From positions 186,001 through 250,000 of the forward strand of contig NZ_QPKJ02000006.1 of NCBI RefSeq assembly GCF_003344625.1: DNA of 64,000 nucleotides. Direction: 5' to 3'. The notes under the pieces are model-generated. The model saw nothing but the letters and a program-made list of their open reading frames with translations. It ran no database searches and had not been told where the DNA came from. Within the stretch, counting starts at the first letter, position 1; every line of letters begins with the position of its first letter. Positions 29,972 to 48,112 of this stretch are shown piece by piece. The DNA is from Solirubrobacter deserti (GTDB lineage Bacteria; Actinomycetota; Thermoleophilia; Solirubrobacterales; Solirubrobacteraceae). Both the position numbers and the translations under genes were made by a program.

Positions 29972-31648
29972 GTGTCGATTCCCAGTTCTAGCCGTGCGCG
30001 CAGGAGCGCAGTAGCGGCCCTTCTCGCGGTAGCGGTACCGCTGACGGCGGCGACGTCCGCCAGCGCGGCACCGAACGCGGCGCAGAAGCTCGCGTCCGCC
30101 GCGAAGCAGCACCCGAACAAGCGCGTCACCGCCATCGTCCAGTTCAAGTCCTCGGTGTCCGAGGGCAAGGCCAAGGCGATCGTGAAGGCCCACAAGGGCA
30201 AGGTCACGGACAAGCTCCCGGCCGTCAACGGCTTCGCGGTCAAGCTGCCCGCCAAGCAGGCGGGCGTGCTGAAGACCGTCAAGGGCGTCGCGAACGTCAC
30301 GCTTAACACCAAGGTCAACACCACCGGCGTGTCGGCCGAGCAGCTGGTCACCAACTTCCCGAAGACCACCGGCGCCGACCAGGCGTGGGCGCAGGGCATC
30401 ACCGGCAAGGGCATCGGCGTCGCGGTCATCGACTCCGGCGTCAACGGCGACATCGCGGACTTCAAGAACGCCGACGGCTCGTCGCGCATCACCAACGTCA
30501 TCTCCAACCCGGGCGCGCTGACCGCGGGCGACCCGGTCGGCCACGGCACGCACGTCGCGGGCATCGTGGCCGGCAACTCGGCCTACCGCACCGACGGCCT
30601 GGCCGGCAAGTACGCCGGCATCGCGCCGGAGGCGGACATCGTCGCCATCAAGACCTCGGACGAGCTCGGCAACTCGACCGTCCTGGACGTCATCAACGCG
30701 CTGCAGTTCGTCGTCGAGCGCAAGGACGAGCTCAACATCCGCGTCGTGAACCTGTCGGTGTCCTCGGACACGCCGGGCTCCTCGCAGGTCGACCCGCTCA
30801 ACGCGGCCGTCGAATTCGCCTGGCACGCCGGCATCGTCGTCGTGTCCGCCGTCGGCAACCGCGGCAACGCGGCCGACGCCGCCCAGTACGCGCCGGGCAA
30901 CGACCCGTACGTGATCTCCGTCGGCGCGACCGATGAAGCCGACACGCCGAACCCCGCCGACGACACGGTCGCGGCCTTCTCGAGCCGTGGCCGGAGCCAG
31001 GACGGCTTCGACAAGCCGGACGTGTTCGCGCCGGGCGCCAAGATCGTCGCCCCGCTGGCCGCCGGCTCGGCGTTCTCGCTGCTGGCCCCGGCCACCAGCA
31101 TCTTCGAGGGCGGCCAGTACGTCCGCATCGGTGGCACCTCGATGGCCGCTCCGGTCGTCGCCGGCGCCGCCGCCCTGGTCCTCCAGGCGCGCCCCGAGCT
31201 GAACCCCGACCAGGTCAAGGCCCTGCTCACGCAGAACGTCAGCCCGACCGCGGCCGGCGTCGGCTCGGTCAACGTCCCGGCCGCGCTCGCCGCGCAGCCC
31301 GGTGCGGCCAACGCCGGCCTGACGCCGAACCCGATCGTCAAACAGGCCCTGGTGGTCAACGGGATCGACCCGACGCGCGCCACCTGGACGCGCGCCACCT
31401 GGACGCGCGCCACCTGGACCCGGGCCACCTGGACCGGCTCCGTCTGGACCCGCGCCACGTGGACGGCGGGCGCCGCGCCCACCAACGCCCCGTGGGCGCG
31501 CGCCACCTGGACCTGCACGGCCTGCATCGGCTCCCCCGATGCGGTCGTCGACCCCACCCGCTCCACCTGGAGCCGCTCCACCTGGAGCCGTTCGACCTGG
31601 AGCCGTTCGACCTGGTCCCGCAGCACGTGGTCGAGCATCGAATGGTGA
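29972..31648 (+). CDS. Secreted S8 (subtilisin-like) serine protease with Trp-pentapeptide-repeat tail
   Basis: 558 residues. Signal peptide (~1-33), an inhibitor-I9-like prodomain (~45-115, TAIVQFKSSVSEG..), then the catalytic domain with Asp in VAVIDSGVNG (~153), His in GHGTHVAGI (~191) and Ser in GGTSMAAPV (~390). The last ~90 residues are repeats of R-[AS]-T-W-[TS], a DNA-level 15-bp tandem array, interrupted by a Cys-containing spacer (TWTCTACIG). The start is GTG at 29972 behind CGGAGG. It is probably a secreted or surface protease whose tail binds the cell envelope or folds as a small solenoid; this role is a guess. A 10-bp hairpin ends the transcript. Confidence 0.93.
   Translation: MSIPSSSRARRSAVAALLAVAVPLTAATSASAAPNAAQKLASAAKQHPNKRVTAIVQFKSSVSEGKAKAIVKAHKGKVTDKLPAVNGFAVKLPAKQAGVLKTVKGVANVTLNTKVNTTGVSAEQLVTNFPKTTGADQAWAQGITGKGIGVAVIDSGVNGDIADFKNADGSSRITNVISNPGALTAGDPVGHGTHVAGIVAGNSAYRTDGLAGKYAGIAPEADIVAIKTSDELGNSTVLDVINALQFVVERKDELNIRVVNLSVSSDTPGSSQVDPLNAAVEFAWHAGIVVVSAVGNRGNAADAAQYAPGNDPYVISVGATDEADTPNPADDTVAAFSSRGRSQDGFDKPDVFAPGAKIVAPLAAGSAFSLLAPATSIFEGGQYVRIGGTSMAAPVVAGAAALVLQARPELNPDQVKALLTQNVSPTAAGVGSVNVPAALAAQPGAANAGLTPNPIVKQALVVNGIDPTRATWTRATWTRATWTRATWTGSVWTRATWTAGAAPTNAPWARATWTCTACIGSPDAVVDPTRSTWSRSTWSRSTWSRSTWSRSTWSSIEW
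31371..31635 (+). repeat. 15-bp in-frame tandem repeats in the subtilase tail
   Basis: Two blocks of 15-bp units encode Trp-containing pentapeptides: 31371-31470 (unit around CGCGCCACCTGGACG, about six copies, some degenerate) and 31552-31635 (units around CGCTCCACCTGGAGC, later CGTTCGACCTGGAGC). The second block uses Ser where the first uses Ala/Thr. Near-identical codons in adjacent copies suggest recent expansion by slippage or recombination. Confidence 0.9.
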
Positions 31649-31703
31649 CCTCCGAAGAGCGCGCCACCTGGGGCGGCAAGTAACAACCAAGACCATCTCT
31701 CGT

Positions 31704-31728
31704 GCGAGCGGCCCCAGTGGCCGCTCGC
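31704..31728 (+). terminator. Hairpin terminator after the subtilase gene
   Basis: Arms GCGAGCGGCC (31704-31713) and GGCCGCTCGC (31719-31728) pair perfectly around CCAGT, followed by GGCGTTT. It lies about 55 bases after the subtilase stop and before the next coding region. Confidence 0.75.
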
Positions 31729-31751
31729 GGCGTTTAACCCCTCAAAACGGC

Positions 31752-34326: not shown

Positions 34327-34355
34327 TTGATCCGCTCGCCCGAGGTTGGTAGGCG
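34327..34355 (+). promoter_or_regulatory. Promoter shared by the two recombinase-like genes, copy A
   Basis: TTGATC, 17-base spacer, TAGGCG, preceded by a GCGTA element. The same two hexamers with the same 17-base spacing occur upstream of the paralogue (50954-50982), which supports a genuine sigma-70-type promoter. Confidence 0.65.
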
Positions 34356-34402
34356 TACCCGCAGCAGTGAGGGACGGTTGTCGTCGTGGGAAGGAGCCGT
34401 GT

Positions 34403-35311
34403 ATGCAACGCGGAGCAGTCCGGACAGGCGGTTCGCGGCGAGTGCGACGGCAGGCGGTGGCGATCGCGCTCCTGTTCTCCGCGGACGGCGTAGGCGCTTC
34501 GCTGCTCGGCGCCCCGGCGTGGCTGGCGCTCCTGTACGTCGCGCTCGGCCTGGCCCTCGCCACGCTGCGTTTACGCTTCGCCCGTCGGCCCTCCGCACCC
34601 GCCGAGGCCGCGGCCGCGGCGGAGCCGGCGCCCGTCGCACCCCTGCCCGCCCGCCGACGAGCCATCGGCTACGTCTGCTTGGCGGACGTATCGAACGGAG
34701 CGCTTGAAGCACACACGGCCGCCGTCACGGCGTGCTGTGAGGCCCGTGGCCTGCAGCTGCTGACCGTGGTCCACGACATCGACGCGGCCGGGCGCGACCA
34801 GCGCCCCTCGCTGGCGTGGGCCCTCGAGCAGCTCGCGGACGGCAAGGCCGAGGCGCTCGTCGTCGGGCGGCTGCGCGACCTGTCCGCGAACGTGGCGAAC
34901 CTCCCGCCGCTGCTGACGTGGTTCAACGACGAGGACCGGCGGCTGATCGCCGTGGACCTCGAGCTCGACACGTCGACCGAGGCCGGCCAGCTCGCGGCGT
35001 CCGCGGTCGCGGGCGTCGGCGGTTGGGAGCACGAGAAGATCTCCGAGCGCACGCGCCGCGGGCTCGAGGCCGCGCGCGCCCGCGGCAACGGCAACGGCCG
35101 CACCTCCGTCGCCGACGTGCCTGAGCTGCAGGAGCGGATCGCCGGGATGCGCGCGAACGGGATGACGCTGCAGGCCATCGCCGACGTCTTGAACAGCGAA
35201 GGCGTGCCGACGCTCCGGGGCGGGACGATGTGGCGCCCGTCGAGCGTGCAACGGGCCACAGGCTACCGGCGGCCGTCGAACAGCCGCGGCATCGAGCTGC
35301 CCAAGCGCTGA
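34403..35311 (+). CDS. Membrane-anchored serine-recombinase homologue lacking catalytic residues (paralogue A)
   Basis: 302 residues. One or two hydrophobic helices (~18-60) and a proline/alanine linker precede a resolvase-like domain (~87-220) and a recombinase-type helix-turn-helix (MTLQAIADVLNSEGVPTLRGG, ~250-270). The nucleophile motif YVRVS reads YVCLA (Arg and Ser both lost), and DRLSR reads RDLSAN (both Arg lost). The helix-E region GWEHEKISERTRRGLEAARARG is kept. ATG at 34403 has GAAGGAG upstream. It cannot recombine DNA by the known mechanism. A membrane-bound DNA-binding or regulatory role is the simplest guess. Confidence 0.87.
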   Translation: MQRGAVRTGGSRRVRRQAVAIALLFSADGVGASLLGAPAWLALLYVALGLALATLRLRFARRPSAPAEAAAAAEPAPVAPLPARRRAIGYVCLADVSNGALEAHTAAVTACCEARGLQLLTVVHDIDAAGRDQRPSLAWALEQLADGKAEALVVGRLRDLSANVANLPPLLTWFNDEDRRLIAVDLELDTSTEAGQLAASAVAGVGGWEHEKISERTRRGLEAARARGNGNGRTSVADVPELQERIAGMRANGMTLQAIADVLNSEGVPTLRGGTMWRPSSVQRATGYRRPSNSRGIELPKR

Positions 35312-35348: not shown

Positions 35349-38300
35349 ATGGCGAAGCCCCCTTGCGCCGGGCCTTCGCGGGTTCTGAGAATCGGCGGCA
35401 TGCTGCTCAAGGGCCTTGCCGCCGCACTCGCCGTCGTCGCGACGTCACTGGCCGTCGCGAGCGCCGCGACACCCGCTCGCATCGCGCCGGGCCAGCGCGT
35501 CGAGCTCAAGGTCCTCCTGCTCTCCGCCGACGGGCAGGAGTCCGGTTTCGGAGCGTGGAAGGCGCAGCTCGAACGCGAGGGCGTCCCCTACGACACGTTC
35601 GTCGCCTACGACCAGCGGCGCCGGATCGCGACGTTGACGGACGCGCGGCTGGCCGACTACGGCGCCCAGCTGGCGCGCTACCAGGCGGTCATCCTCGCCA
35701 CCGGCGACCTGGGCCATGACGTCCGCAACGCGGACGGCACCGTCAGCCACCTCTCCGCGCTGACGGACACCGAGTGGGCGGCGCTCGCCAGGTTCGAGCG
35801 GACCTTCGGCGTCCGCCGGCTCAGCGACTACACCGCACCGTCCGCCGCGCGCGGGCTCACCGCCGTGCCCGGTGCGTGGCAGGACGGCAACCCGGCGCGG
35901 CTCACCGCCGCCGGGCGGGCCGCGTTCCCGTACCTGCGCGGGCCGGTCACGATCGCCGACGACGCGCCCGGCCCCAACGAGGCCTTCGGGTACGGGGCCA
36001 AGCCGGTGGCGGGTGCGCCGTGGCTGACGCTGCTCGAAGGCGCCGGGGAGACGGCGCTGCTCGGGATCTACACGCATCCCGAGGACGGGCGCGAGGAGCT
36101 GGTCATGACCGTCGCGAGCAACCAGTTCCAGAACCACAACCAGCTGCTGCGCCACGGCATGCTCAACTGGGTCACGCGCGGCGTGTTCCTCGGCGCCGAA
36201 CGGCACTACCTGGGGCTGCAGATCGACGACCTGTTCCTCGGCGACGACGTGTGGGACCCGGTCACGCACACGACCCGCTACGACCAGAGCAGCCGCATGA
36301 CGCCCGCGGACGTCGACCGGGCGATCGGGTGGTCGCGCGGGCGCGGCCTGCGTCTGGACATGGTCTTCAACGGCGGCGGCAGCGAGCCCGGTGACCCGCT
36401 TGCGGCGTACTTCCGCGACAACGCCGGCGTGCGCGCCGCGTTCGGCTACATCAACCACACCGACACGCACGCGAACCTGGACTGCTCGACGAGCTCGTTC
36501 ATCCGTGACCAGATCCGCGACAACGTGGCCTTCGCGCGGGCGAACGGGCTCCCCCTCGACCCCACCGAGCTGGTGACGGGCGAGCACTCCGGACTCGCCA
36601 ACGCGCGCCCGGGCAACCCCGGGACGATCGACCCGCCGTCCATCGACGAGACGACCGTCGGCACCGGCACGCTCGCCGCCGGCACCTACGACTACGCGTT
36701 GACCGCGCGCTCACCGGCCGGTGAGACGGTTCCGTACGAGGAGGAGCTGACGGTGCCCGCGGCGTCGTCGGTGACCGTGCACTTCGACGCCGTCTGCCAC
36801 GCGATCGGGTTCGACCTCTACCGGCGCGTGACGGGCACCACCGACTGGACCCGCGTGGCGTCGATGCCTCGCAGCGCGACGGCGGCGACCGACGACGGCG
36901 TCGTGCCGGTCACCCACACGCTCACGGACACGGGCGCGGCGGGCACGGCCGCGGCGCCGCCGGCGGTCAACGGCGCGGCGCTCGCGCCCTACGGGCAGAA
37001 CCCCGCGTTCCTCGCCGGTGTCACGGCCGGTGGCGTGTCGACGATCGCGTCCGACGCGTCGAAGGGCTATCCCACGACGCCGACGGTCATCACGAGCCCG
37101 CTGCTCCCGGCCGGCGCTTCCTTCGTCATGGGCGCCGTGCGCGCCGTCCCGCGCTATCCCAGCAACGTCTACTACAACGCCTCGCGCCAGGGTCAGCAGC
37201 TCGACGAGTACAACTGGATCTACGTGGCTCCGCCGGGCGGCGCCTGCGTCCCGGTGGCGGGCGTGACGACGTGCCGCGCCGCGGCCGCCACCTGGGCGGA
37301 GTACGTGAGCAGCGAGACGCAGGTGATGTTCCGGCACGTCACCGGCAACGACGCGCGGCCGCACTACTTCCACCAGAGCAACCTCGCCGATCACAACCCG
37401 GCGCTGCCTGACGTCCACCCCGACCAGGGCGGCGTCCTGTACCCGGTCATCGACGCGCTGGTGGCCCGCTACGAGGCGGCGTTCGATCGCGCCGCGGCGC
37501 CCCTGGTGCAGCTCGGGGCGACGCAGATCGCGGCGACGCTCGCGCGCCAGGAGGCGTGGGCGCGCGACGAGGGCGCCATCCGCGCGTGGCTGCAGGACGG
37601 GCGCGTATACGTACGCAACACCGGCTCGTCCGCGGTGACCGTGCCGCTGACGGGCGTCGAGGGCGGGGAGAGCTACGGCGGCCAGCGCTCGCGCTGGGTG
37701 TCGGTCGACCCGGGCGCCCAGGTCAGCTTCGCGCCCGCGGAACCCGCGCCGACACGGGCCCCGGCCGTGCGCGGCGAGCCGCGGGTGGGTGAGCGGCTGG
37801 AAGCCGAAGCGGGCGCGTGGACGGGAGCTCCGGAGCTCTCATACCAGTGGCAGCGGTGTGTCACCGCGTGCGTGAACGTGGCGGGCGCGACCGAGGCCGC
37901 GTACACGCTGGAAGACGCCGACGAGGGCCGCACCGTGCGCGTGGCGGTGCTCGCCGGCAACTGGGTGTCGTCCGTCAGCCAGGCGCTCTCCGCGCCGACC
38001 CGGACGATCGCGCCGCGGGCGCCAGCGGCGCGGGAGGAACGCGCCGGACGTGACAACGAACCCCCCGCGCGTCCGGCGCCGCCTTCCGGCTCGACGCCCG
38101 CTCCCGGCTCTGCGCCGCCTTCCGGCTCGACGCCCCCTTCCGGCACGTCCCGGCCGGTCGCCGCACCCGCGCGGCTGCGCCTGACTCGCCTGAGCATGAG
38201 CCCGCGGCGCTTCGCGGTCGCACACCGCCGCGCACGGCTCGGGTCGCGCCTCGACGGCACGCGGATCACGTGGCGGCTCAACCGCGCCGCGACGGTCCGG

Positions 38301-38510
38301 CTCACCTTCCAGCGGCGCACGCGGACCGGCTGGGTACGCGTCGGGCGGATCGAGCGAGCGGGGTCGCCGGGAACGAGCGTCGTCCGCTTCCGCGGGCGCT
38401 TCGGAGAGCGACGGCTGCGGGCGCAGCGCCACCGGCTCGTCGTCACGGCCGTCGCCGGCCGTGAGCGGACCGCCCCGCGCCGCCTCGCCTTCCGGGTCGT
38501 GAGCGGATGA
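35349..38510 (+). CDS. Secreted Agd3-like (CE18) polysaccharide deacetylase with Ig-like domain
   Basis: 1053 residues. Signal peptide (ATG 35349, or ATG 35400 giving MLLKGLAAALAVV..), an N-terminal beta-sandwich region (~45-270), then a NodB-type deacetylase: metal Asp in LQIDDLF (~290), HTDTH (~372) and TGEHSGL (~412). An Ig-like unit with SYQWQRC (~830), a Pro/Ser/Gly linker and a basic C-terminal beta domain follow. This architecture matches Agd3, which removes acetyl groups from N-acetylgalactosamine polymers outside the cell. It opens the Pel-like operon and overlaps the next gene by four bases. Confidence 0.85.
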   Translation: MAKPPCAGPSRVLRIGGMLLKGLAAALAVVATSLAVASAATPARIAPGQRVELKVLLLSADGQESGFGAWKAQLEREGVPYDTFVAYDQRRRIATLTDARLADYGAQLARYQAVILATGDLGHDVRNADGTVSHLSALTDTEWAALARFERTFGVRRLSDYTAPSAARGLTAVPGAWQDGNPARLTAAGRAAFPYLRGPVTIADDAPGPNEAFGYGAKPVAGAPWLTLLEGAGETALLGIYTHPEDGREELVMTVASNQFQNHNQLLRHGMLNWVTRGVFLGAERHYLGLQIDDLFLGDDVWDPVTHTTRYDQSSRMTPADVDRAIGWSRGRGLRLDMVFNGGGSEPGDPLAAYFRDNAGVRAAFGYINHTDTHANLDCSTSSFIRDQIRDNVAFARANGLPLDPTELVTGEHSGLANARPGNPGTIDPPSIDETTVGTGTLAAGTYDYALTARSPAGETVPYEEELTVPAASSVTVHFDAVCHAIGFDLYRRVTGTTDWTRVASMPRSATAATDDGVVPVTHTLTDTGAAGTAAAPPAVNGAALAPYGQNPAFLAGVTAGGVSTIASDASKGYPTTPTVITSPLLPAGASFVMGAVRAVPRYPSNVYYNASRQGQQLDEYNWIYVAPPGGACVPVAGVTTCRAAAATWAEYVSSETQVMFRHVTGNDARPHYFHQSNLADHNPALPDVHPDQGGVLYPVIDALVARYEAAFDRAAAPLVQLGATQIAATLARQEAWARDEGAIRAWLQDGRVYVRNTGSSAVTVPLTGVEGGESYGGQRSRWVSVDPGAQVSFAPAEPAPTRAPAVRGEPRVGERLEAEAGAWTGAPELSYQWQRCVTACVNVAGATEAAYTLEDADEGRTVRVAVLAGNWVSSVSQALSAPTRTIAPRAPAAREERAGRDNEPPARPAPPSGSTPAPGSAPPSGSTPPSGTSRPVAAPARLRLTRLSMSPRRFAVAHRRARLGSRLDGTRITWRLNRAATVRLTFQRRTRTGWVRVGRIERAGSPGTSVVRFRGRFGERRLRAQRHRLVVTAVAGRERTAPRRLAFRVVSG

Positions 38511-38887
38511 GCGTCGACGAGCGGCCGCGGCGGTTCGGACGCCGGCGCGCGGACTTCGAGGCCCTGGAGGCCGCGGGCGAGTCGCTCGGGGCGCTGCGCG
38601 CCGAGCTGACGCTGCTGCGCGAGGAGAACGCGCGGCTGAAGGCGGCCCCGCACCAGGCGCCGGACATCGCCGCGCTGCTCGGACGCGCCCGGACGCTGCC
38701 CGAGACGCCGCTGGACGACGCCAGCCTCGCCGATGAGATGACGCGGGTGCTGGTCGAAGGGCTCGTCGTGCGCGAGTCGCTGCTCGAGATCTGCCAGGAG
38801 ATCGAGCGGGCGATGGTGTCGTTCGAGGCTCGGCTGAAGGCGTTGGACACCACGGTGAGCCTGCATGGCGGCGGCACCCGCGCTTGA
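38507..38887 (+). CDS. Small coiled-coil protein of the exopolysaccharide operon
   Basis: 126 residues, no signal peptide or membrane helix. A basic N-terminus is followed by a coiled coil (FEALEAAGESLGALRAELTLLREENARL, ~20-50) and a second helical half. ATG at 38507 overlaps the deacetylase stop, and the pelF start lies inside its 3' end, so it is translationally coupled on both sides. It is in the place where Pel loci carry assembly or scaffold proteins, but no homology to PelE or PelD was recognised. Confidence 0.75.
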   Translation: MSVDERPRRFGRRRADFEALEAAGESLGALRAELTLLREENARLKAAPHQAPDIAALLGRARTLPETPLDDASLADEMTRVLVEGLVVRESLLEICQEIERAMVSFEARLKALDTTVSLHGGGTRA

Positions 38888-40364
38888 GCCCGCACCCCCG
38901 GCGCCGGCGCCGCGCGCGGCGGCGCCGGGCCCTCGCCCCCGGGTCCTGCTGCTCACGGAGGGCACGTACCCGTACGCGCTCGGCGGCGTGAGCTCGTGGT
39001 GTGACCTGCTGATCCGGGGGCTCGACGAATTCGACTGGGCGGTGCTGCCGATCGTCGCCGCGGACGGGCGCCCGCCCCTGTACGAGCTGCCGCCGCACGC
39101 CCACGAGATCGGGCCGCTGGAGGTGTGGTCGGAGCGCCGGCCGCGAGGCGGCGGCCGCGGGCCGTGCCGGTGGGACCTTCCGGGGGCGCTCGTCCGAGGG
39201 CTGCTGGGGTGGCACGGTGACACCGAGGCCGTGGTCGCCGAGTGCGTGTGGTGCCGGCACCACCCGGCCGGGGTGCGGCGCGTGTTCCGGTCCGGGCGGG
39301 GGTGGAACGCGTTCCTGGCCGGGCTGCGGGACGTGCTGGCCGAGCGCATCCCGGAGGCGGGGACGCCGCCCCGGCTGGACCTCGTGGAGGCCGCCGCGCT
39401 CTACCAGACGCTGTACTGGGTCGCGCGCACGGCGTCCGCGCCGACCCCCGCCGCGGACGTGCTCCACGTCACCGCCGCAGGCTGGTCGGCCATCCCGGCG
39501 CGGGTCCACAAGGCGCTGCACGCGACCCCGATCGTGTTGACCGAGCACGGTGTCTACCTGCGGGAGGCGTACCTCGCGGCCGTGCGCAGCGGCGGCTCGC
39601 CCGGTGCGCGGTTCTCCGCCACGCGCTTGGCGCGCGGGCTCGCGCGCTGCGCGTACGCGGGCGCGGACGTCATCTGCCCGGTCACCGACGCGAACGCCTA
39701 CTGGGAGATGGGGCTCGGGATCGACCCGGCGAAGATCCTCGTCCTCTACAACGGGCTGCGTCAGCCGCCGCCACCGTCGCCGCCGCCGGGCGAGCGCATC
39801 GTCGTGTCGGTCGGGCGGATCGATCCGCTCAAGGACATCTACACGCTGCTGCGCGTGGCGGCGGAGACGGTGCGGGTCATGCCGGAGGCGCGCTTCCGCC
39901 ACTTCGGGTCGACGACCGCCGGGGAGGAGGCCTACGGCCGCTCGTGCCTGGCGCTGCACGAGCGGCTCGGTCTCGGTGACCGGTTCGCGTTCATGGGACG
40001 CACCACGGACCCGACGGGCGTGGTGCAAGGGGCCGACGTGGTCCTTATGACGAGCATCTCGGAAGGGCTTCCGATGTCCGTGCTCGAGGCGATGAGCCAG
40101 GGCCGCCCCGTCGTGTCCACCGCCGTGGGCGGCGTGCCCGACGTGGTCAAGGGCTGCGGCGTCGTGTGCGCCCCCGGGGACGACCACGCGCTCACGACCG
40201 CGGTCGTGATGCTCCTTCGCAATCCGGAGCTCGCGTGGCGGCTCGGGCTGCGTGGGCACGCCCGGCTTGGACGCATCTTCAACGAAGGCGCCTGCGTCGA
40301 GGGCTACCGCGAGCTGTTGCACACGCTCACCCGCGACCGGGCGCGGCTGCACGCGGTGCGGTGA
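38865..40364 (+). CDS. pelF: PelF-type GT4 glycosyltransferase
   Basis: 499 residues, the usual PelF length. After a proline/alanine-rich leader the DUF3492 N-terminus reads VLLLTEGTYPYALGGVSSWCDLLI. The C-terminal GT-B half has VSVGRIDPLKDI and the retaining GT4 E-x7-E in SEGLPMSVLEAM (~397). PelF is cytoplasmic and polymerises UDP-GalNAc/GlcNAc into the Pel chain. It overlaps the gene before by 23 bases and the gene after by one. Confidence 0.88.
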   Translation: MAAAPALEPAPPAPAPRAAAPGPRPRVLLLTEGTYPYALGGVSSWCDLLIRGLDEFDWAVLPIVAADGRPPLYELPPHAHEIGPLEVWSERRPRGGGRGPCRWDLPGALVRGLLGWHGDTEAVVAECVWCRHHPAGVRRVFRSGRGWNAFLAGLRDVLAERIPEAGTPPRLDLVEAAALYQTLYWVARTASAPTPAADVLHVTAAGWSAIPARVHKALHATPIVLTEHGVYLREAYLAAVRSGGSPGARFSATRLARGLARCAYAGADVICPVTDANAYWEMGLGIDPAKILVLYNGLRQPPPPSPPPGERIVVSVGRIDPLKDIYTLLRVAAETVRVMPEARFRHFGSTTAGEEAYGRSCLALHERLGLGDRFAFMGRTTDPTGVVQGADVVLMTSISEGLPMSVLEAMSQGRPVVSTAVGGVPDVVKGCGVVCAPGDDHALTTAVVMLLRNPELAWRLGLRGHARLGRIFNEGACVEGYRELLHTLTRDRARLHAVR

Positions 40365-41674
40365 TGACGGCCGCGCGCGCCTCCGGGCTGGTCGAGGCAC
40401 GGCTGGGGCGCCCGCCGCAGGATGCCCTCGAGGCCGCGGTCGTGCTCGAGGCGTGGGCGGGCGTGCCCGCACAACAGGCGCTGGAGACCGCGAGCGCCTG
40501 CATGCCCCGCACGCCGGCGCCGCCGGCCCTGAGCGGTACGCGGCCGGCGACGCCGCGCCGCCCACCACGGATGGCCGCCGAGGGAGCGGCCCTGCTCGCG
40601 ACCGTGTCGGCGATCGCCCTTTGGGCCGCGCCGCTCGCGGCGGCGCTCGGCGACGGCGTGGTCGGCCGCGCTCTGACGCTCGCCCTGCCGCTGGCGCTCG
40701 GCCTGCACTCGGCGCTTCAGGCCCGGCACCTCGGGCGGCCGTCCGGCCTCGACGGTCTGCGCCACCGGCGCGCCGCACTGATCGTCGGGGCCGTCGCGCT
40801 CGTGGCCGGCCCGGCCGCGGTCCTCGGCTCGGCGGGAGCGCTGGCCGGCCTGCTCACGGTCACCTGGACGAGCGGCAGCATCCTGCTCCGCCGCGGCTGG
40901 GTCGCGGGGTACGCCGCGGTCGTCGTCGGCGCGACGCCCGTGATGCTCGCGGACGTGCCCGCGCTCGCCGTGGTGGCCGCAGTCGCGACGATCGCCACGG
41001 CCGCCGCCGCGTGCGCCATCGGCACCCCGCGCGGGCGGCGTGCCGCCGACGAGCCGCGCGCGCGCCGCGTACGGCGGGCCGTCGTGCCCGGGCCCTGGAC
41101 CCGGATGGCCGGCGCGGGGCTCGCCGGGGTCGGCATCGGGGTGCTGCTCGTCGGCGACCCGTCCGTGGGGTGGGCGGGTGGGCCGGCGGCGGCGCTCGCC
41201 CTGTTGCCGTCGGCGGTCGGCGGGCTGTGGGCGGGGCACGCGCTCTGGCGGCTCGCCGACGTGTTCCCGCAGGCGCTGTCCGGCGTGCCGGCGTGCGACG
41301 GGACGGGTCCTTCGGCGCGGCGCTCGGTGGGGACGCTCGCCGGGGCGATCGGGCGGCTCGCGCTGACGACCGTGGTCGGGTCGCTCGCCGTCGTGCTGGT
41401 GGCGCCGGGTCCCGGGGCGGGCGTGCTCGCCGGCTTCGGCGTGGTCGCGCTCGCCGGCGTGCTCGTCGCGCTGCTGGAGTCGCTCGGGCGACCGGTCTGG
41501 GCGACACCGGCCATCGCGGCGGGCGTCGCCGCCGAGCTCGCCGTCCCGGTGCCGTTCGACGGCGCCGCGTTGGCCGCCGGCGGCGCGGTGGCGGTCCTGC
41601 TGATGGCGCCCGCGGCACTGGTCCTGCTCGCCCGGCCGGCTCGCACGCTGGCCACGGCCCTGTGGATCCCATGA
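40364..41674 (+). CDS. Polytopic membrane protein in the PelG position
   Basis: 436 residues. A cytoplasmic N-terminal ~65 residues (DALEAAVVLEAWAGVPAQQALE) precede about eleven or twelve hydrophobic helices, very Ala/Val/Gly-rich. Directly after pelF, Pel operons encode PelG, a twelve-helix Wzx-like inner-membrane transporter of similar size. Clear PelG sequence motifs were not recognised, so the assignment rests on position, length and topology. TGATG coupling to pelF supports a working partnership. GTG at 40361 is an alternative start. Confidence 0.7.
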   Translation: MTAARASGLVEARLGRPPQDALEAAVVLEAWAGVPAQQALETASACMPRTPAPPALSGTRPATPRRPPRMAAEGAALLATVSAIALWAAPLAAALGDGVVGRALTLALPLALGLHSALQARHLGRPSGLDGLRHRRAALIVGAVALVAGPAAVLGSAGALAGLLTVTWTSGSILLRRGWVAGYAAVVVGATPVMLADVPALAVVAAVATIATAAAACAIGTPRGRRAADEPRARRVRRAVVPGPWTRMAGAGLAGVGIGVLLVGDPSVGWAGGPAAALALLPSAVGGLWAGHALWRLADVFPQALSGVPACDGTGPSARRSVGTLAGAIGRLALTTVVGSLAVVLVAPGPGAGVLAGFGVVALAGVLVALLESLGRPVWATPAIAAGVAAELAVPVPFDGAALAAGGAVAVLLMAPAALVLLARPARTLATALWIP

Positions 41675-42342
41675 GCCGCGCCGGCGTGCTCGCCACCGTG
41701 GTGCTCGCGGGCTGCGGCGCACAGCCCGATCCGGTCTGCCCGGAGCCGCTCGTCCCCGCCTACGTGTCCGCCGACGAGTTCCTGCGGATCGCAGAACGCG
41801 CGCCGCTTCCGCGGCTGCTCGTCGTCAACCCCGCCAGCGGCCCGGGGACCGAGGCCGAGCCGGCCTTCCGCCGCGCCATCGCCACCGCCCAGGCGAACGG
41901 CGCGCGCGTCCTGGGCTACGTGGCGACCCGCTGGGGCGCGCGCCCGCGCGCTGAGGTGGCCCGCGACGTCCGGCGCTACCGCGCGTGGTACGGCATCGAC
42001 GGCATCTTCCTCGACGAGGCGGGGGACGACGAACCCCGCATCGACCAGTACCGGGCGCTCGCCGCCGACGCACGGGCCGCGGGAGCGGACTTCCTGGTCC
42101 TGAACCCGGGCGTGGTGCCGGCCCGCGCCTACTTCGAGCTCGCCGACGTCGTCGTCACGTTCGAGGGCTCCTACGCCGACTACCGGCGTTGGCACCCGCC
42201 CGCCTGGCTGGACTCGGAACGCACCGCGCACCTCGTCTACGCGGCACCGCAGGCTGCCGACGTGCCGCCCAACGCGTACCTGACCACCGGCACCCTGCCC
42301 CACCCGTGGGGCACCGTCACGCGGCCGCGAGCGTGCCCATGA
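41671..42342 (+). CDS. Spherulin-4/GH135-type galactosaminan hydrolase lipoprotein
   Basis: 223 residues. Lipobox VVLAGC at ~12-17 predicts a lipoprotein. The TIM-barrel-like body has LLVVNPASGPG, VLGYVATRWG, the acidic motif GIDGIFLDEAGDD (~112-124) and FLVLNPGVVPARAYFELADVVVTFE, all typical of Spherulin-4 (Sph3, GH135), which cleaves partially deacetylated GalNAc polymers. ATG at 41671 overlaps the membrane-protein stop. It could trim the polymer made by the locus. Confidence 0.86.
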   Translation: MSRAGVLATVVLAGCGAQPDPVCPEPLVPAYVSADEFLRIAERAPLPRLLVVNPASGPGTEAEPAFRRAIATAQANGARVLGYVATRWGARPRAEVARDVRRYRAWYGIDGIFLDEAGDDEPRIDQYRALAADARAAGADFLVLNPGVVPARAYFELADVVVTFEGSYADYRRWHPPAWLDSERTAHLVYAAPQAADVPPNAYLTTGTLPHPWGTVTRPRACP

Positions 42343-43802
42343 CCCGCGAGCCGAACCTCTGGGCCCGCCGCCCGCACGACCGCCACCCCGACCTGTACGA
42401 AGCGGAGTACGCGAAGCAGCTCGAGCGGATCGCGCGTATACGCACCACCGTCAGCGCAGGACTGCCGCACGACGAGCCGCCGACCCACGCGAGCGGTGAC
42501 GAGCGTTGGCTCGCGCCGGCGGGCCCGCGCGACGACGCCCCCTGGGCCGCAATGGGCGGCCCATGCGACGACGAAGCGCCGCCACGCGCGGCCGCCGCGG
42601 ACGCGAGCGCGCGCGTCCGCCGCGACGGGACGTCCACCCGCTGGGACGTCGCGCCGGCCGACCTGGCGCCGCCGCTCGGCGAGCCACCGCGGCCGTGGCG
42701 CCGCCCACCGGAGTGGCGTCGCCACAACGGCACGCCGGGCGGCACAGCGAGCTCGTGGGAAGCACCGGCCGCCGCGCAGCCCGACTCGCGCCGGCCCGCC
42801 ACGACGCCGCAAGACGCACCGGCGCGTCCCGCGCCCGGCTCCCGCCGCTCCGGCGCCGGCACGACTCGCTCGCGCCGCCTGGCCGTGGCCCGGTGGGCGG
42901 CGCTGGTCGCGATCGCCGTCGGGCTCGCCGCCAGCGCGCTCTGGCTCGTCCGGTCCGAGCCGCGCACCGCCGCGGCCGCGACCACGTTCCGCGTGCCGGC
43001 TCAACCGACCGGGATCGCGGTTGCCGGCGGCCGGGTGTGGGTCGCGGGACCGGGTGCCGGGGCTGTCTGGATCCTCGACCCGGCGACGGGTCGTCCCGCG
43101 GCCCCGGCGCTCAGGACGGGCGGCACGCCCGCCCGGGTCGCCGTCGGGCCGCGGTGGGCATGGGTCGCCGATACGCGCAGCGGCGCGATCGTGCGCGCCA
43201 GGGCCGACGGCACCGGCGCTCCCCGGGTGTTGAGCCGGGGCCCGGACGTGACCGACGTCGCGGTCGCCGCCGGGGCCGTGTGGGCGGCCGGCTCCGCGGA
43301 CGGGACGATCCGGGTGCGCCCGGACCGAGGCCCGTGGCGGACGCTGCACGTCGGCTCGCGCCCGCTGGCGCTGGCGGCGGACGAGCGTCGTGTGGTGGCC
43401 GTGGACGCCAGCACAGGGACGCTCGTGCGGTTGTCCGCGGCCCGCAGACGCGTCGAAGGACCACCGATCGCGCTCGGCGGTGCCCCGGTGGACGTCGCGC
43501 TGGACGGGGAGCACGCCTGGGCGGTCGACTCGGCCGCCGGGACGCTGCAGCGGATCGACGTCGATCGTGGCGTGGCCGACCTGCCCGCACCGCTGTGCGC
43601 CGCACCACTGGCCGTCGCGGCCGGCCGCGGCGAGGTGTTCGTCCTGTGCCGCGGCGACCGCGCTCTTCTCCACCTCGACGGCCTCACGGGGCAGCTCCGC
43701 CGCCGCACGCCTCTGCCCGCGCCGCCGACCGCCCTCGCCCTCGACGACCGGCACGTGTGGATCGCGGCCGGCGAGCACGAGGTGATCCGCGTTGACCGTT
43801 GA
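42339..43802 (+). CDS. Single-pass membrane beta-propeller protein A
   Basis: 487 residues. A long charged, proline-rich cytoplasmic segment (1-170) leads to one membrane helix (RRLAVARWAALVAIAVGLAASALWLV, ~172-197) and an extracytoplasmic propeller of repeats such as PTGIAVAGGRVWVAGPGAGAVWILDP, each ~40 residues. YncE/Vgb-like repeats of this kind bind proteins or sugars. ATGA coupling to the GH135 gene puts it firmly in the operon. A similar but separately oriented protein lies at 46347. Confidence 0.82.
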   Translation: MTREPNLWARRPHDRHPDLYEAEYAKQLERIARIRTTVSAGLPHDEPPTHASGDERWLAPAGPRDDAPWAAMGGPCDDEAPPRAAAADASARVRRDGTSTRWDVAPADLAPPLGEPPRPWRRPPEWRRHNGTPGGTASSWEAPAAAQPDSRRPATTPQDAPARPAPGSRRSGAGTTRSRRLAVARWAALVAIAVGLAASALWLVRSEPRTAAAATTFRVPAQPTGIAVAGGRVWVAGPGAGAVWILDPATGRPAAPALRTGGTPARVAVGPRWAWVADTRSGAIVRARADGTGAPRVLSRGPDVTDVAVAAGAVWAAGSADGTIRVRPDRGPWRTLHVGSRPLALAADERRVVAVDASTGTLVRLSAARRRVEGPPIALGGAPVDVALDGEHAWAVDSAAGTLQRIDVDRGVADLPAPLCAAPLAVAAGRGEVFVLCRGDRALLHLDGLTGQLRRRTPLPAPPTALALDDRHVWIAAGEHEVIRVDR

Positions 43803-43824
43803 CAACCCCAGGAAGGGGGATCGC

Positions 43825-44721
43825 ATGCGCCGCATACCGCTGCTGATCGGACTCGCGGTGACGGCCACCGCCGCGCACCCCGCGCGCGCCGCGGCTCAGG
43901 CGCCGCCCGGGCCCCCGGGGCCGCCGCCCGGAAGCGGGGCGAACCTGCCGTCCTCACCGGGCACGGCGCTGTCCTTCGTTCCGCCCGGCGTCCCGATGAA
44001 CGTCCCGCCGGCCACCGGCCCGGGACTGCTGCGCGACACGAACGCCCGCCTCGACGACCGCCGCTTCACCCTCCGCTTCGCCTGCCAGCGGGACGGCGCG
44101 CTGCAGGTCCGCGCCCCGCGCATCGCGCCACGCGCAATCGCCGCCACCCGCTTCCGCTGCGTGAACCAGCGCGCCACCGCGCGCCTGACGGTCTCGACCC
44201 GCAGCGCGCGCCGGATCGCACGTCGCTCGAGCGTCGCGGCCACGGCCGTGATCGACCGCGCCCGGCTGCACTTCACGCTCACCTCCCGCAGACGCGCCGC
44301 GGCCGTGAAGGGCTTCTGGACGGACGGCCACCTCCAATGCGACCCCGGGTTCCTCGTCGAGCCGGACTTCACCACCAAGGCCGCGACGCCCGTGTCCACG
44401 CGCGGCTGGGTCGCGGTGTACACGGCCGCCACCGGCTGGCACTGGTTCGGCACCCTGGGCGAGAACCGCGGACGCTGGAACGCCTGGACGGCGACGCGCA
44501 CCGGCATCGCCCAGTTCCACCCGGACGCGAGCGTGACGCCGGTTCCCTGGACGCTCGGCCCGATCAGCGTGCCGCCCGGCTCCGGACGCTACGCCGTCGG
44601 CGTGTACGAGATCGTCTATTGGGTCGGCGGGCGCGCCGACCACCAGTGGCAGTACGTCAACGCGGGCACGACCGGCGCTGTCGCCGCGGGCTCGCCCACC
44701 CACTACTGCGTGTACCCGTGA
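43825..44721 (+). CDS. Secreted protein of unknown function in the exopolysaccharide operon
   Basis: 298 residues. Signal peptide (MRRIPLLIGLAVTATAAHPARAAAQ) followed by a Pro/Gly-rich linker, a basic beta region (~70-165, RFACQRDGALQVRAP) and a C-terminal domain with several Trp and paired Cys (HLQCDPGF, WHWFGTLGENRGRW, HYCVYP). ATG at 43825 follows a strong AGGAAGGGGG box. No family was recognised. Its high positive charge outside the cell could favour contact with anionic polymers. Confidence 0.75.
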   Translation: MRRIPLLIGLAVTATAAHPARAAAQAPPGPPGPPPGSGANLPSSPGTALSFVPPGVPMNVPPATGPGLLRDTNARLDDRRFTLRFACQRDGALQVRAPRIAPRAIAATRFRCVNQRATARLTVSTRSARRIARRSSVAATAVIDRARLHFTLTSRRRAAAVKGFWTDGHLQCDPGFLVEPDFTTKAATPVSTRGWVAVYTAATGWHWFGTLGENRGRWNAWTATRTGIAQFHPDASVTPVPWTLGPISVPPGSGRYAVGVYEIVYWVGGRADHQWQYVNAGTTGAVAAGSPTHYCVYP

Positions 44722-44723
44722 TC

Positions 44724-45674
44724 ATGCGCAGCGCCCTCGTCACCGGCGGAGCCGGGTTCATCGGCTCCCACCTCGTCAACGCGCTCGTCGAAGACGGCCG
44801 CCGCGTCACCGTCCTGGACGACCTCTCGACCGGTCGCTGGGAGAACCTGTTCGGCGCGCTCAACCACGGCGTGCGGCTGACACCGGGGAACGTGACCGAC
44901 CCACACGCCGTCGCCCGCGCGCTCACCGCCGAGCGGCCCGACACGATCTACCACCTCGCCGCCCAGATCGACGTCCGCCACGCCGTCGCCGACCCCATCC
45001 ACGACGCCGTCGTCAACCTGATCGGCACGCTGACGCTGCTGCAGGCCGCCCAGCGCCACGGCGTCCGGCGCTTCGTGCTGGCCTCGACCGGCGGGGCCAT
45101 CTACGGCGAGGCGGACGTCCTGCCGACGCCCGAGAGCGCCGAGGTCCGTCCCGCGTCCCCCTACGCCGCCTCCAAGGCGGCCGCCGAGAGCTACCTGGAC
45201 CTCTACCGCACGCTGTTCGGCCTCTCGACACTCAGCCTGCGCCTGTCCAACGTCTACGGCCCGCGCCAGAACGGCGCGGGCGAGGCCGGCGTGGTCGCGA
45301 TGTTCTGCGCTGCCGCCCGCGCCGGGCACCCCGTCACCGTGTTCGGCGACGGCGGCCAGACGCGTGACTTCCTGTACGTCGACGACGTCGTGCGCGCGTT
45401 CATGGCCGCCGGCGAGCGCCCGGTGACCGGCTGCGTGAACGTCGCCACCGGGCGCGAGACGACCGTGCTGGCGGTGGCGCAGGAACTCGGCCTGCGCGTG
45501 CGTCACGCGCCCGAGCGCGCGGGCGAGGTCCGACGCTCCTGCCTGGACCCGTCGCGCGCAGCCGCGGCGCTGGGCTGGGCGGCCCGCGTCGCGTTCACCG
45601 ACGGGCTGGACCGCACGCTCACCAGCATGGCTCCCGCCACGCGTCGAGCGCCAGTCGCTTCCGTTGCGCCATGA
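44724..45674 (+). CDS. NAD-dependent sugar-nucleotide epimerase (GalE-like)
   Basis: 316 residues, extended SDR. NAD motif GGAGFIGSH at the N-terminus, DDLSTGR, LAAQIDV, the Ser/Thr in ASTGGAIYG and YAASK (the catalytic Tyr-x3-Lys), then SNVYGPRQ and VFGDGGQTRDFLYVDDVV. In Pel and galactosaminogalactan clusters a UDP-glucose/UDP-GlcNAc 4-epimerase supplies UDP-GalNAc, which fits here. ATG at 44724 is used; GTG at 44718 overlapping the upstream stop is equally possible. Its last 56 bases overlap the converging GH114 gene. Confidence 0.86.
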   Translation: MRSALVTGGAGFIGSHLVNALVEDGRRVTVLDDLSTGRWENLFGALNHGVRLTPGNVTDPHAVARALTAERPDTIYHLAAQIDVRHAVADPIHDAVVNLIGTLTLLQAAQRHGVRRFVLASTGGAIYGEADVLPTPESAEVRPASPYAASKAAAESYLDLYRTLFGLSTLSLRLSNVYGPRQNGAGEAGVVAMFCAAARAGHPVTVFGDGGQTRDFLYVDDVVRAFMAAGERPVTGCVNVATGRETTVLAVAQELGLRVRHAPERAGEVRRSCLDPSRAAAALGWAARVAFTDGLDRTLTSMAPATRRAPVASVAP

Positions 45675-46350
45675 ACCCGAGGTCGCGGGCGGCGGGGCAG
45701 AACCCGCCGTCCGCGTACTCGACGACGAAGACCGCCTTGCCCGCGTCCGCGAACGGCTTCAACCGCGCGCACTCACGGTACGCGAAGCACTCCTCGCTGA
45801 GCGCCCAGTCGTACCACGGCTCGAGCGCGCGCACCTGCTCCAGGTCGTTCTTGAGAGCGATGGAGAGCCCGCGAGCGTGCGCGGCCCGCGCGAGCCACCG
45901 GTTGAAGCGCAGCTGATGGCGCCCGCGCAGGGCGAACCCGGAGTCGTTGGCATACCCGTCCACGTTGTCGGGCTCGACCGCGTCGAAGCCCTTCTCGGCG
46001 CACAGGTTCAGCCGCCGCCGCATGATCGGCCGCAGGACGCTCAACCGGCGCACGTCGAGCCAGCGTTCGCGCGGCCAGTCCGCGAGCCGCTGGCCGATCA
46101 CGCTTCGGGGGAAGGCCTTCGAGTCCGGGCGCCCCGGCTCGTGCGTGCCCGCGCTGAAGTAGCACGCGGCCCGCGCGCCCATCGCGTGGATGCGCGCGAC
46201 GTCGGCGGCCGAGGTCTCGAACAGGTCGACGTCGTAGAGGTCCGCACGCACGGACAGGTCGAGCCGGCCGCTGAGCTGCCACTGGAAGGTGCTCGTCGGC
46301 GGCGGGGCCCACGGAACGGCGAGCGCCACCGCGGCGATCAACGCGATCAC
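45619..46350 (-). CDS. GH114 endo-alpha-1,4-polygalactosaminidase, secreted
   Basis: 243 residues. A short signal peptide (MIALIAAVALAVPWAPP) is followed by a TIM barrel with YDVDLFETSAADVARIHAMG, ACYFSAGTHE, the catalytic-region motif FDAVEPDNVDGY (~130-141), IALKNDLEQ and the acidic SEECFAY. This matches GH114/Ega3, which cleaves alpha-1,4-galactosamine. GTG at 46350 overlaps the upstream stop. It is the last gene of a leftward three-gene operon converging on the synthesis operon, and probably degrades or releases the same polymer. Confidence 0.88.
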   Translation of the reverse strand: MIALIAAVALAVPWAPPPTSTFQWQLSGRLDLSVRADLYDVDLFETSAADVARIHAMGARAACYFSAGTHEPGRPDSKAFPRSVIGQRLADWPRERWLDVRRLSVLRPIMRRRLNLCAEKGFDAVEPDNVDGYANDSGFALRGRHQLRFNRWLARAAHARGLSIALKNDLEQVRALEPWYDWALSEECFAYRECARLKPFADAGKAVFVVEYADGGFCPAARDLGFMAQRKRLALDAWREPCW

Positions 46351-47327
46351 CGCGGGCGCAGCCGGATCACCGTGCCGCTGCGCGCGTCGACCACCCACGC
46401 GCTGCCGGCGCCGACCGCCAGCCCCGTCGGGAAGCCTTCGATCCGGGTCACACGGCGGGTCCGCCCGCTCGGGTCGATCGCCCGCACCGTGCCGTCGCGG
46501 GTGTCGAGGACGAGCACGCCCTCGGCCGTCACGGCCAGCGCCCCAGGCGCCCCGCCCACGGGGATGGCGCCCTCCGGACGCCCCGTGCGCGCGGACAGCC
46601 GCGTCACGGTACCGTCGCCGCGGTTGGCCACCCACACCGAGCCGTGCCCGACCGCGATGTCCTGCGGATCCCGGCCGACGGGGATGCGGCGTCCCAGCAC
46701 CACGTCCTCGCGGGGATCGATGCGCGCGACGGTGCCGTCCCCCGCGTTCACGACCCACACCGAACCGGCGCCGACCGCGAGCGCCGCCGGGAAGCTGCCG
46801 GTCCGCACCGGGGTCCCGAGGACGCGGTTGCCGACCGGGTCCACGCGCGTCACCGTGCCGGCGAGCCCGTTCGTCACCCACGTGCCCTCGGCGCTCACCG
46901 CGACGTCCACGGCCGGCGCGCGGATGGCGATCCGGCGCCCGCTGCCGGGCACGAGAGGATCGATGCGGGTGACGCTGTCGTCGCCGGCGTTCGCCGTCCA
47001 CACCGAGCCGCCACCGACGGCGACGCGCAGCGGCGAGGAGCCTGCTCGGTGGATCGTGGGGTCCCCTTCCACATCGCGGACGTCCAGGGCCACGACCCGG
47101 TCGTCGCGGCCGCTGACGACCCACACGGTCGAGCCCTCGACCGCGACGTCGGTGGGCAAGCGGCCGGCCGCGAGCCGGCGGTCGTCGGACACGACCGCCG
47201 GCTCGCGCAGCAGGATCACCACGGCGGCGGGCGCGAGCAGCAGGACCAGCATCACCGCCGCGAACGCCGCCATCGTCTTGCGCGACAGCGGGCGCGTCGG
47301 GTCGCGAGGCGCCGTCAGCACCGACAT
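46347..47327 (-). CDS. Single-pass membrane beta-propeller protein B
   Basis: 326 residues. A short cytoplasmic N-terminus, one membrane helix (MAAFAAVMLVLLLAPAAVVILL, ~19-40) and about six YVTN-like repeats of the form P..VAVG.GSVWVVN..DGTV.RIDP. It resembles the propeller at 42339 but lacks the long cytoplasmic region. TGATG coupling joins it to the protease-like gene upstream and GTGA coupling to GH114 downstream. Its role is unknown; binding of envelope polymer or protein is likely. Confidence 0.82.
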   Translation of the reverse strand: MSVLTAPRDPTRPLSRKTMAAFAAVMLVLLLAPAAVVILLREPAVVSDDRRLAAGRLPTDVAVEGSTVWVVSGRDDRVVALDVRDVEGDPTIHRAGSSPLRVAVGGGSVWTANAGDDSVTRIDPLVPGSGRRIAIRAPAVDVAVSAEGTWVTNGLAGTVTRVDPVGNRVLGTPVRTGSFPAALAVGAGSVWVVNAGDGTVARIDPREDVVLGRRIPVGRDPQDIAVGHGSVWVANRGDGTVTRLSARTGRPEGAIPVGGAPGALAVTAEGVLVLDTRDGTVRAIDPSGRTRRVTRIEGFPTGLAVGAGSAWVVDARSGTVIRLRPR

Positions 47328-48112
47328 CACGGATCGACGCTCTCCGTGCCGGGAAGCCGCGTGGGCGCGACGGCGGCGTTCAACCGAGCGTCCTCGGGCC
47401 GGAAACCCGGGTGCGCGGCGCGAGCGCGCGCGTGCTGGCGGCTCACGCACCGGTACTGCTCCGCCCAGCCGACGAAGACCCGCCGTGGCCCCGGCCTCAG
47501 TTCGCCCATGCGCGCCTTGATCCGCGCCCACCGCACGGCGGTGGCCGGCGCGCCGGCGAGCTCGGCACGCGCCATGCCGACCAGCCGCCCGGCCGCGTCG
47601 ACGACGGGCCCGCCGGACACCTCGGGCACCAGTGGCGAGTCCAGCCGCCCGGCGGAGTCCGCTCGCACGGGGATGGTCGCCAGGCCCGAGCCCACGCCGG
47701 CCGCGCGCCGGCCGACGGACCGCAGCAGGCCGTCGCCGGCGGGCGAGCCGGCCGGCGCGCTCGCGAGCGCCGCAAGGCCCGGGATGCGCGGGTGGACCTC
47801 GAGCAACGCGAGGTCGTCGCACGGCGCTCGGGCCACGATCCGCCCGTGCAGCACGCCGAAGCCGGTCGCGAGCTTGAGCGAGCGCGCGCCCCACACGGCG
47901 TGGGCGGTGGTCGCCACCAGCCCGCGATCCGCGTCGACCACGAACCCCGAGCCGAGCTGCTCCTCGCCGCCCACACGCGCCGACACGCCCACGACGCCCA
48001 GGTCGAGCCGCTGCGCCGGCGGCGCCGGGGCGGCCGGGCCCTGGCGCTCGTCGCCACAACCCGCCAGCGCGGCGCATACCACAGCGGCTGTCGGAACCAC
48101 GAGCCGGTCCAT
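47327..48112 (-). CDS. Trypsin-like (S1C) serine protease lipoprotein
   Basis: 261 residues. A lipobox ALAGC at ~15-19 predicts a lipoprotein. A chymotrypsin-fold protease region has GSGFVVD, His in ATTAHAV (~70), Asp in CDDLALLEV (~100) and Ser in EVSGGPVVD (~166). The Ser motif is VSGGP where NSGGP is usual. The C-terminal tail carries one Cys (EQYRCVSRQH). ATG at 48112 is used. It heads the operon with propeller B and GH114 and may mature or regulate secreted components. Confidence 0.8.
   Translation of the reverse strand: MDRLVVPTAAVVCAALAGCGDERQGPAAPAPPAQRLDLGVVGVSARVGGEEQLGSGFVVDADRGLVATTAHAVWGARSLKLATGFGVLHGRIVARAPCDDLALLEVHPRIPGLAALASAPAGSPAGDGLLRSVGRRAAGVGSGLATIPVRADSAGRLDSPLVPEVSGGPVVDAAGRLVGMARAELAGAPATAVRWARIKARMGELRPGPRRVFVGWAEQYRCVSRQHARARAAHPGFRPEDARLNAAVAPTRLPGTESVDP

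What the first reader, a model, noticed from the sequence alone, without database searches (positions are those of the whole stretch)
35349..48112. Pel/galactosaminogalactan-like polysaccharide locus in an actinobacterium
Agd3-type deacetylase, PelF glycosyltransferase, a PelG-sized membrane protein, GalE-like epimerase and two different galactosaminan hydrolase families (GH135, GH114) occur together. This mixes parts of bacterial Pel with fungal galactosaminogalactan machinery. Canonical PelD/E/B/C are missing, and propeller, coiled-coil and unknown secreted proteins take their place.
Basis: partly seen in the sequence, partly recalled or inferred. Interest (0 to 1): 0.85.

Follow-up and report, generated by a model that had tools for sequence, protein, structure and literature searches.

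The report
Bacterial galactosamine biofilm-polymer gene cluster
A soil bacterium carries one compact gene cluster that looks built to make, export, trim and partly deacetylate a sticky galactosamine polymer like those in mould and Pseudomonas biofilms; related clusters are common in actinobacteria, and its unannotated membrane protein is predicted to have a transporter fold.

Summary
In Solirubrobacter (S. deserti by a 100% match), 35400-45674 (+) is a packed eight-gene run: Agd3-type CE18/CBM87 deacetylase, small coiled-coil-like protein, PelF, membrane protein, GH135, anchored propeller, secreted beta-protein, GalE-like epimerase. GH114, a second propeller and a trypsin-like lipoprotein converge on the minus strand. 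CE18, PelF, GH135 and GH114 each match once in the 7.55-Mb genome, all here. Catalytic residues are intact.

The idea is not new: Bamford et al. 2020 reported bacterial agd3 operons with a glycosyltransferase, a multi-spanning membrane protein, often GH114, sometimes spherulin-4. Of 69 named CE18 loci, 62 hold PelF; of 49 with long flanks, 35 hold PelF, GalE-like, GH135 and GH114 together.

What I add: the membrane protein, without Pfam or PelG match, is predicted as a MATE/WzxE/MurJ (MOP) fold, the class reported for PelG, and its family is present in 61 of 62 PelF loci. I read this as a CE18-type Gram-positive Pel/GAG-like machine with a cryptic PelG-like exporter. Propellers and coiled-coil look like lineage additions, not replacements for Pel parts. 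The sugar is inferred, not shown.

The parts
35400..38510 (+). Agd3-type deacetylase (CE18 with CBM87), 1036 aa; the longest open frame starts at 35349
   Evidence: Pfam Agd3_CE and CBM87_Agd3 over cut-off; PDB 6nwz, E 3.5e-12 single sequence, 1.3e-21 with profile; D276, D277, H353, H357 kept in 69 of 69 and R585, H658 in 68 of 69 named loci
38507..38887 (+). 126-aa soluble protein with a coiled-coil-like N-terminal half (my reading of the sequence)
   Evidence: No family over cut-off in Pfam (one sub-threshold match) and none in NCBIfam; sequence; relatives in 9 of 69 named loci
38865..40364 (+). PelF, GT4 glycosyltransferase, 499 aa
   Evidence: DUF3492, NCBIfam NF038011 over cut-off; R318, K323, E400, E408 kept in 61-62 of 62 loci, the rest gaps
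40364..41674 (+). Membrane protein, 436 aa: about 60 residues of short helices, then 12 long helices; predicted MOP-superfamily fold; candidate PelG-like exporter
41671..42342 (+). GH135 (Spherulin4/Sph3-like), 223 aa, lipoprotein-like start
   Evidence: PF12138 E 1e-33; PDB 5c5g E 4.1e-16; D115 and E165 kept in 47 of 47 loci
42339..43802 (+). Propeller-like protein with one membrane segment, 487 aa
   Evidence: DUF6923 20.8 bits, below cut-off 27; sequence; relatives in L035, L036, L118 only
43825..44721 (+). Secreted all-beta protein of unknown function, 298 aa
44724..45674 (+). GalE-like sugar-nucleotide epimerase, 316 aa
   Evidence: PF01370; PDB 7ys8 E 2.6e-73; Y147 and K151 kept in 53 of 53 loci
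45619..46350 (-). GH114 (Ega3-like endo-galactosaminidase), 243 aa, GTG start
   Evidence: PF03537 E 1.6e-75; PDB 6oj1 E 4.2e-47; D128 in 47 and E186 in 45 of 48 loci, the rest gaps
46347..47327 (-). Second membrane-anchored beta-propeller, 326 aa
   Evidence: NHL over cut-off (20.4 vs 20 bits), Vgb_lyase below cut-off; NCBIfam YVTN repeat over cut-off
47327..48112 (-). Trypsin-like peptidase with lipoprotein-like start, 261 aa; link to the system uncertain
   Evidence: PF13365 40.4 bits, cut-off 27.6; frame and start

Best explanation
This is a CE18-type Gram-positive Pel/galactosaminogalactan-like exopolysaccharide operon. The GalE-like epimerase supplies UDP-GalNAc (inferred). PelF polymerises it into an alpha-1,4-linked, GalNAc-rich chain at the inner face of the membrane (inferred from its family). 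The MOP-fold membrane protein passes the chain across the membrane, as PelG is thought to do (fold predicted here, export inferred). Outside, the Agd3-type enzyme removes part of the N-acetyl groups, giving a cationic, adhesive polymer, and GH135 (acetylated stretches) and GH114 (deacetylated stretches) trim or release it (domains and catalytic residues shown here; activities inferred from Agd3, Sph3 and Ega3). Propellers, coiled-coil and secreted beta-protein are lineage-specific accessories of unknown role.
For: Four enzyme families tied to GalNAc/GalN polymers, each with one match in the genome, in one locus. Overlapping or closely spaced genes. Same core in other actinobacteria: 62 of 69 CE18 loci hold PelF; 35 of 49 long-flank loci hold PelF, GalE-like, GH135 and GH114. 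Catalytic columns conserved. Membrane protein: MOP fold, family in 61 of 62 named PelF loci, and the two subfamilies are related by hhalign, 95.5% over 382 columns. PelG is described as a 12-helix MOP exporter in PMC13254593 (passages).
Against: No chemistry or mutant. Sugar specificity of PelF and of the epimerase is not tested; the epimerase column that I tried as a specificity marker varies between loci. No sequence kinship of the membrane protein with PelG. No Foldseek hit below E 0.001. No PelD in the locus. Of 49 long-flank loci 9 lack GH135, 6 lack GH114 and 4 lack the GalE-like gene. The Agd3 residue M666, which the paper says is needed, aligns to a tyrosine, though in a weak stretch, and the CBM tryptophan W344 aligns to a glutamine. 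GH135 E116 is kept in only 4 of 47 loci.
Confidence: 0.75

Rival explanations
1. The locus makes a different amino-sugar or mixed polymer (for example Gal/GalNAc as in fungal GAG, or a wall-linked polymer), with the same tailoring enzymes.
For: The epimerase is nearest to UDP-glucose 4-epimerases in the PDB, so UDP-Gal could also be made; Streptomyces locus L093 adds a nucleotidyltransferase and a second epimerase.
Against: GH135, GH114 and CE18 members studied so far act on GalNAc/GalN polymers, and PelF is reported to use UDP-GalNAc (passage).
Confidence: 0.15
2. The membrane protein is a lipid-linked-oligosaccharide flippase (Wzx type) and PelF only extends a lipid-linked unit that is polymerised elsewhere.
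For: The best Foldseek hit is the flippase WzxE (E 8.6e-3), and MurJ also matches.
Against: No initiating sugar-phosphate transferase or Wzy-type polymerase was found among the locus proteins scanned, and its family is present next to PelF as PelG is in pel operons.
Confidence: 0.05
3. The hydrolases and deacetylase serve to attack polymers of competitors (fungal GAG, bacterial Pel) and PelF is unrelated to them.
For: Secreted hydrolases can be catabolic; some loci lack one or more of them.
Against: CE18 and PelF lie within 300 bp in 51 of 69 named loci, and in the window they are in one packed run with the membrane protein and the epimerase.
Confidence: 0.05

Closest known systems
Bacterial agd3 (CE18) operons of Bamford et al. 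2020 (PMC7229062; section 13 read, passages)
   Same: CE18 deacetylase with a cytoplasmic glycosyltransferase, a multi-spanning membrane protein, GH114 and, in some actinobacteria, spherulin-4 (GH135)
   Different: Here the glycosyltransferase is identified as PelF and the membrane protein is given a predicted MOP fold; Solirubrobacter adds propellers, a coiled-coil-like protein and a secreted beta-protein
Gram-positive pelDEADAFG (Whitfield et al. 2020, PMC7112168; section 6 read)
   Same: PelF, deacetylase, GalE-type gene, and a membrane protein of the predicted PelG fold class
   Different: CE18 instead of PelADA (classed CE26 in PMC13254593, passage); no sequence-detectable PelG; no PelD in the locus; two endo-galactosaminidase families added
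Fungal galactosaminogalactan cluster (uge3, sph3, gtb3, agd3, ega3; gene names and recall)
   Same: Homologues of Agd3, Sph3 and Ega3, and an epimerase
   Different: PelF plus a separate MOP-fold protein in place of the fungal synthase Gtb3 (its nature recalled)
P. aeruginosa pelABCDEFG
   Same: PelF; deacetylase and hydrolase functions
   Different: No PelA fusion and no sequence-detectable PelG; PelB, PelC and PelE were not searched for as families

Membership tests
CE18/CBM87 (Agd3) | Agd3_CE and CBM87_Agd3 domains over Pfam cut-off | tested here: met
   38.9 and 29.1 bits, cut-offs 27.6; below cut-off in the genome-wide six-frame scan, 24.3 bits
CE18/CBM87 (Agd3) | Catalytic motifs CM1 (DD), CM2 (HxxxH), CM3 (R), CM4 (H) | tested here: met
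   D276/D277, H353/H357, H658 aligned to 6nwz (CM4 stretch weak); R585 by invariance and spacing; conservation; M666 of CM4 not kept in the window protein
GH135 (Sph3) | Spherulin4 domain and catalytic D/E | tested here: met
   PF12138; D115 and E165 aligned to 5c5g. PMC12054363 prints Asp196/Glu222; my alignment fits 166/222, and D166 is recalled
GH114 (Ega3) | Glyco_hydro_114 domain and Asp189/Glu247 equivalents | tested here: met
   PF03537; D128 and E186 aligned to 6oj1; residues named
PelF | DUF3492 and the NCBIfam PelF equivalog over cut-off | tested here: met
PelF | Uses UDP-GalNAc to make Pel | not testable with these tools
   Needs biochemistry
PelG | PF16933 sequence match | tested here: not met
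   No match at E<=10 in the genome, control Thermotoga maritima positive; no Pfam match; hhalign with 3 PelG sequences 0.2% (one search repeated)
PelG | 12-helix MOP-superfamily fold | tested here: met
   Predicted model only; superfamily-level evidence, not PelG-specific
pelDEADAFG operon | PelD c-di-GMP receptor in the operon | tested here: not met
   PelD_GGDEF only sub-threshold, on other contigs; no GGDEF match in the eight-gene run
pelDEADAFG operon | PelE | not tested
   No family search for PelE was made
Fungal GAG-type polymer | Polymer of Gal and GalNAc/GalN | not testable with these tools
   Needs chemistry

The most novel reading that the evidence does not exclude
Actinobacteria carry a second Gram-positive Pel pathway in which PelF works with a cryptic MOP exporter that has its own conserved N-terminal helical domain, without PelD and so perhaps without direct c-di-GMP control, and with CE18/GH135/GH114 tailoring. 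It would be a living counterpart of the bacterial system from which the fungal GAG cluster was assembled.
Probability: 0.35. Interest if true: 0.75.

Novelty: new variant of a known kind. Interest (0 to 1): 0.5.

Why it matters
Galactosamine polymers hold Pseudomonas and Aspergillus biofilms together. Surveys that rest on PelF plus PelG would probably miss these loci, because the partner protein does not match PelG by sequence. A testable exporter assignment turns a set of 'hypothetical' actinobacterial genes into a candidate pathway, suggests a polymer to look for in Streptomyces and Solirubrobacter, and gives material for the proposed bacterial origin of the fungal cluster.

Tried and rejected
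Rejected: 'replacement' of Pel parts by propellers and coiled-coil (not conserved in the core). Rejected: an epimerase residue as a sign of GalNAc specificity (S272 column is L in 45, V in 4, S in 3, gap in 1 of 53). Tried: hhalign of the membrane family against PelG; only three actinobacterial PelG sequences were to be had, and the first extraction took wrong frames for two of them (mended), so the negative result is weak. The two membrane subfamilies compared with small alignments gave probability 49.5 over 172 columns; larger ones gave 95.5 over 382. A crude hydropathy count saw 8 membrane segments in the longer frame, against 12 long helices in the model. Tried: structure of the secreted protein; weak generic matches only, among them RbmA at Foldseek E 1.2e-3. 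A regex count of active-site motifs was misleading and was replaced by aligned columns. Two early queries were out of frame: propeller 1, and the protease; corrected. Locus counts use my own iterated HMMs at E<1e-5; the GalE model also matches other SDR enzymes, so GalE counts are upper bounds. Not done: family searches for PelB, PelC, PelE; a tree of CE18, GH114 and GH135 with fungal genes. Literature: listings in the open-licence library; no listed abstract and no passage that I read gives a fold for this membrane family, but subscription papers, figures and supplements were not seen.
Full report
What is there. The window is G000:C399:186001-250000. The Agd3-like gene is 100% identical to that of Solirubrobacter deserti CPCC 204708 (L036), so I take the genome as that species. 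On the + strand eight open frames run from 35400 to 45674, overlapping or at most 22 bases apart: CE18/CBM87 deacetylase, a 126-aa coiled-coil-like protein, PelF, a membrane protein, GH135, an anchored propeller, a secreted beta-protein and a GalE-like epimerase. On the minus strand GH114 (45619-46350, overlapping the end of the epimerase gene), a second propeller and a trypsin-like lipoprotein follow.

Identities. Agd3_CE and CBM87 with PDB 6nwz (E 1.3e-21 with a profile); PelF by DUF3492 and the NCBIfam equivalog; GH135 with Sph3 5c5g; GH114 with Ega3 6oj1, E 4.2e-47; epimerase with UDP-glucose 4-epimerases. Public records already call some relatives 'Agd3-related'. Agd3's catalytic residues are named in PMC7229062 (passages). 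Five of six are placed by the alignments, one of these in a weak stretch; R585 for R613 rests on invariance and spacing. Across the named loci CM1 and CM2 residues are kept in 69 of 69, R585 and H658 in 68 of 69; PelF R318 in 62 and K323, E400, E408 in 61 of 62; GH135 D115 and E165 in 47 of 47; GH114 D128 in 47 and E186 in 45 of 48, the rest gaps. That the PelF R, K and ExxxxxxxE positions matter is recalled. Against a strict match: GH135 E116 is kept in 4 of 47, M666 of Agd3 aligns to tyrosine and CBM W344 to glutamine.

More than chance. The genome gives one match each to Agd3_CE, DUF3492, Spherulin4 and GH114, all in this locus.

How widespread. A profile of 21 Agd3 relatives (A1) fetched 69 named loci, without reference to PelF; by their titles 48 of 69 are Streptomyces, Kitasatospora or Actinacidiphila. 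Sixty-two hold PelF, 51 within 300 bp of the CE18 frame. The seven without are two Myxococcales MAGs, two gammaproteobacterial loci and three contigs that end within 20 bases of the CE18 frame. Of 49 loci with at least 5 kb upstream and 8 kb downstream, 48 have PelF, 45 a GalE-like gene, 43 GH114, 40 GH135 and 35 all four. The two gammaproteobacterial loci have GH114 and TPR genes, one with a PelB match below cut-off (18.8 bits, cut-off 31) and a GAF-domain gene, in line with Bamford's remark on Gram-negative operons. In the class search 14 of 399 genomes matched Agd3_CE at E<=0.001, 9 over the cut-off. I fetched 14 regions: 13 chosen for CE18, of which 10 hold PelF, and one chosen for PelF, which has two PelF frames, two GH135 and no CE18. 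The other way round, 7 of 61 relatives have PelF: 11 matched places that I count as 10 genes, 8 at CE18 loci (by adjacency or contig length) and the two of G020.

What it is not. PelD is not in the locus; two sub-threshold matches lie on other contigs. PelB, PelC and PelE were not searched for as families. A GGDEF-EAL protein lies upstream at 31539-34286; matches near CE18 were found in L033, L036 and L118 (close relatives) and one partial in L048. The coiled-coil-like protein (9 of 69) and the secreted protein (5 of 69) and the propellers are restricted, so they are not general substitutes for Pel parts. The secreted protein's model (pLDDT 83.3) is all-beta with only generic matches.

Relation to what is known. 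Bamford et al. [quoted passage not shown] they discuss a bacterial origin of the fungal cluster (passages). Whitfield et al. 2020 (section 6 read) defined Gram-positive pelDEADAFG starting from PelF and PelG loci. This locus joins the two: a PelF synthase and a MOP-fold partner with CE18 tailoring.

Verdict. Shown here: gene content, single-copy clustering, conservation of the core, intact catalytic residues, a predicted MOP fold. Inferred: UDP-GalNAc as substrate, alpha-1,4-galactosaminan as product, export by the membrane protein, a role in adhesion. New variant of a known kind.

Noticed in passing
window 34346-35311 (+): A resolvase-type recombinase (PF00239) lies just upstream of the CE18 gene; relatives lie upstream of CE18 in L033, L035 and L036 and, on the other strand, in L037. 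Phase variation or mobility was not tested.
   Followed up: partly
window 31539-34286 (+): GAF-GGDEF-EAL protein two genes upstream; similar genes near CE18 in L033, L036, L118 and a partial one in L048. It could supply c-di-GMP control, untested.
   Followed up: partly
L033/L037 and L035/L039: Solirubrobacter taibaiensis and Ca. Solirubrobacter pratensis each carry two CE18-PelF loci of differing make-up.
   Followed up: no
L106 (G020:C81:20000-39999): Two PelF frames and two GH135 genes with a Streptomyces-type membrane protein but no CE18 in 20 kb.
   Followed up: no
L041 and L111: Two CE18 frames beside an oppositely oriented PelF-membrane protein-coiled-coil set.
   Followed up: no
alignments A2 and A3, N-terminal parts: The membrane protein family has a conserved N-terminal stretch before the first long helix in both subfamilies; it may be a contact or control domain.
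   Followed up: no
L093 16301-18113: This Streptomyces locus has a nucleotidyltransferase (PF00483) and a second epimerase between galE and GH135.
   Followed up: no
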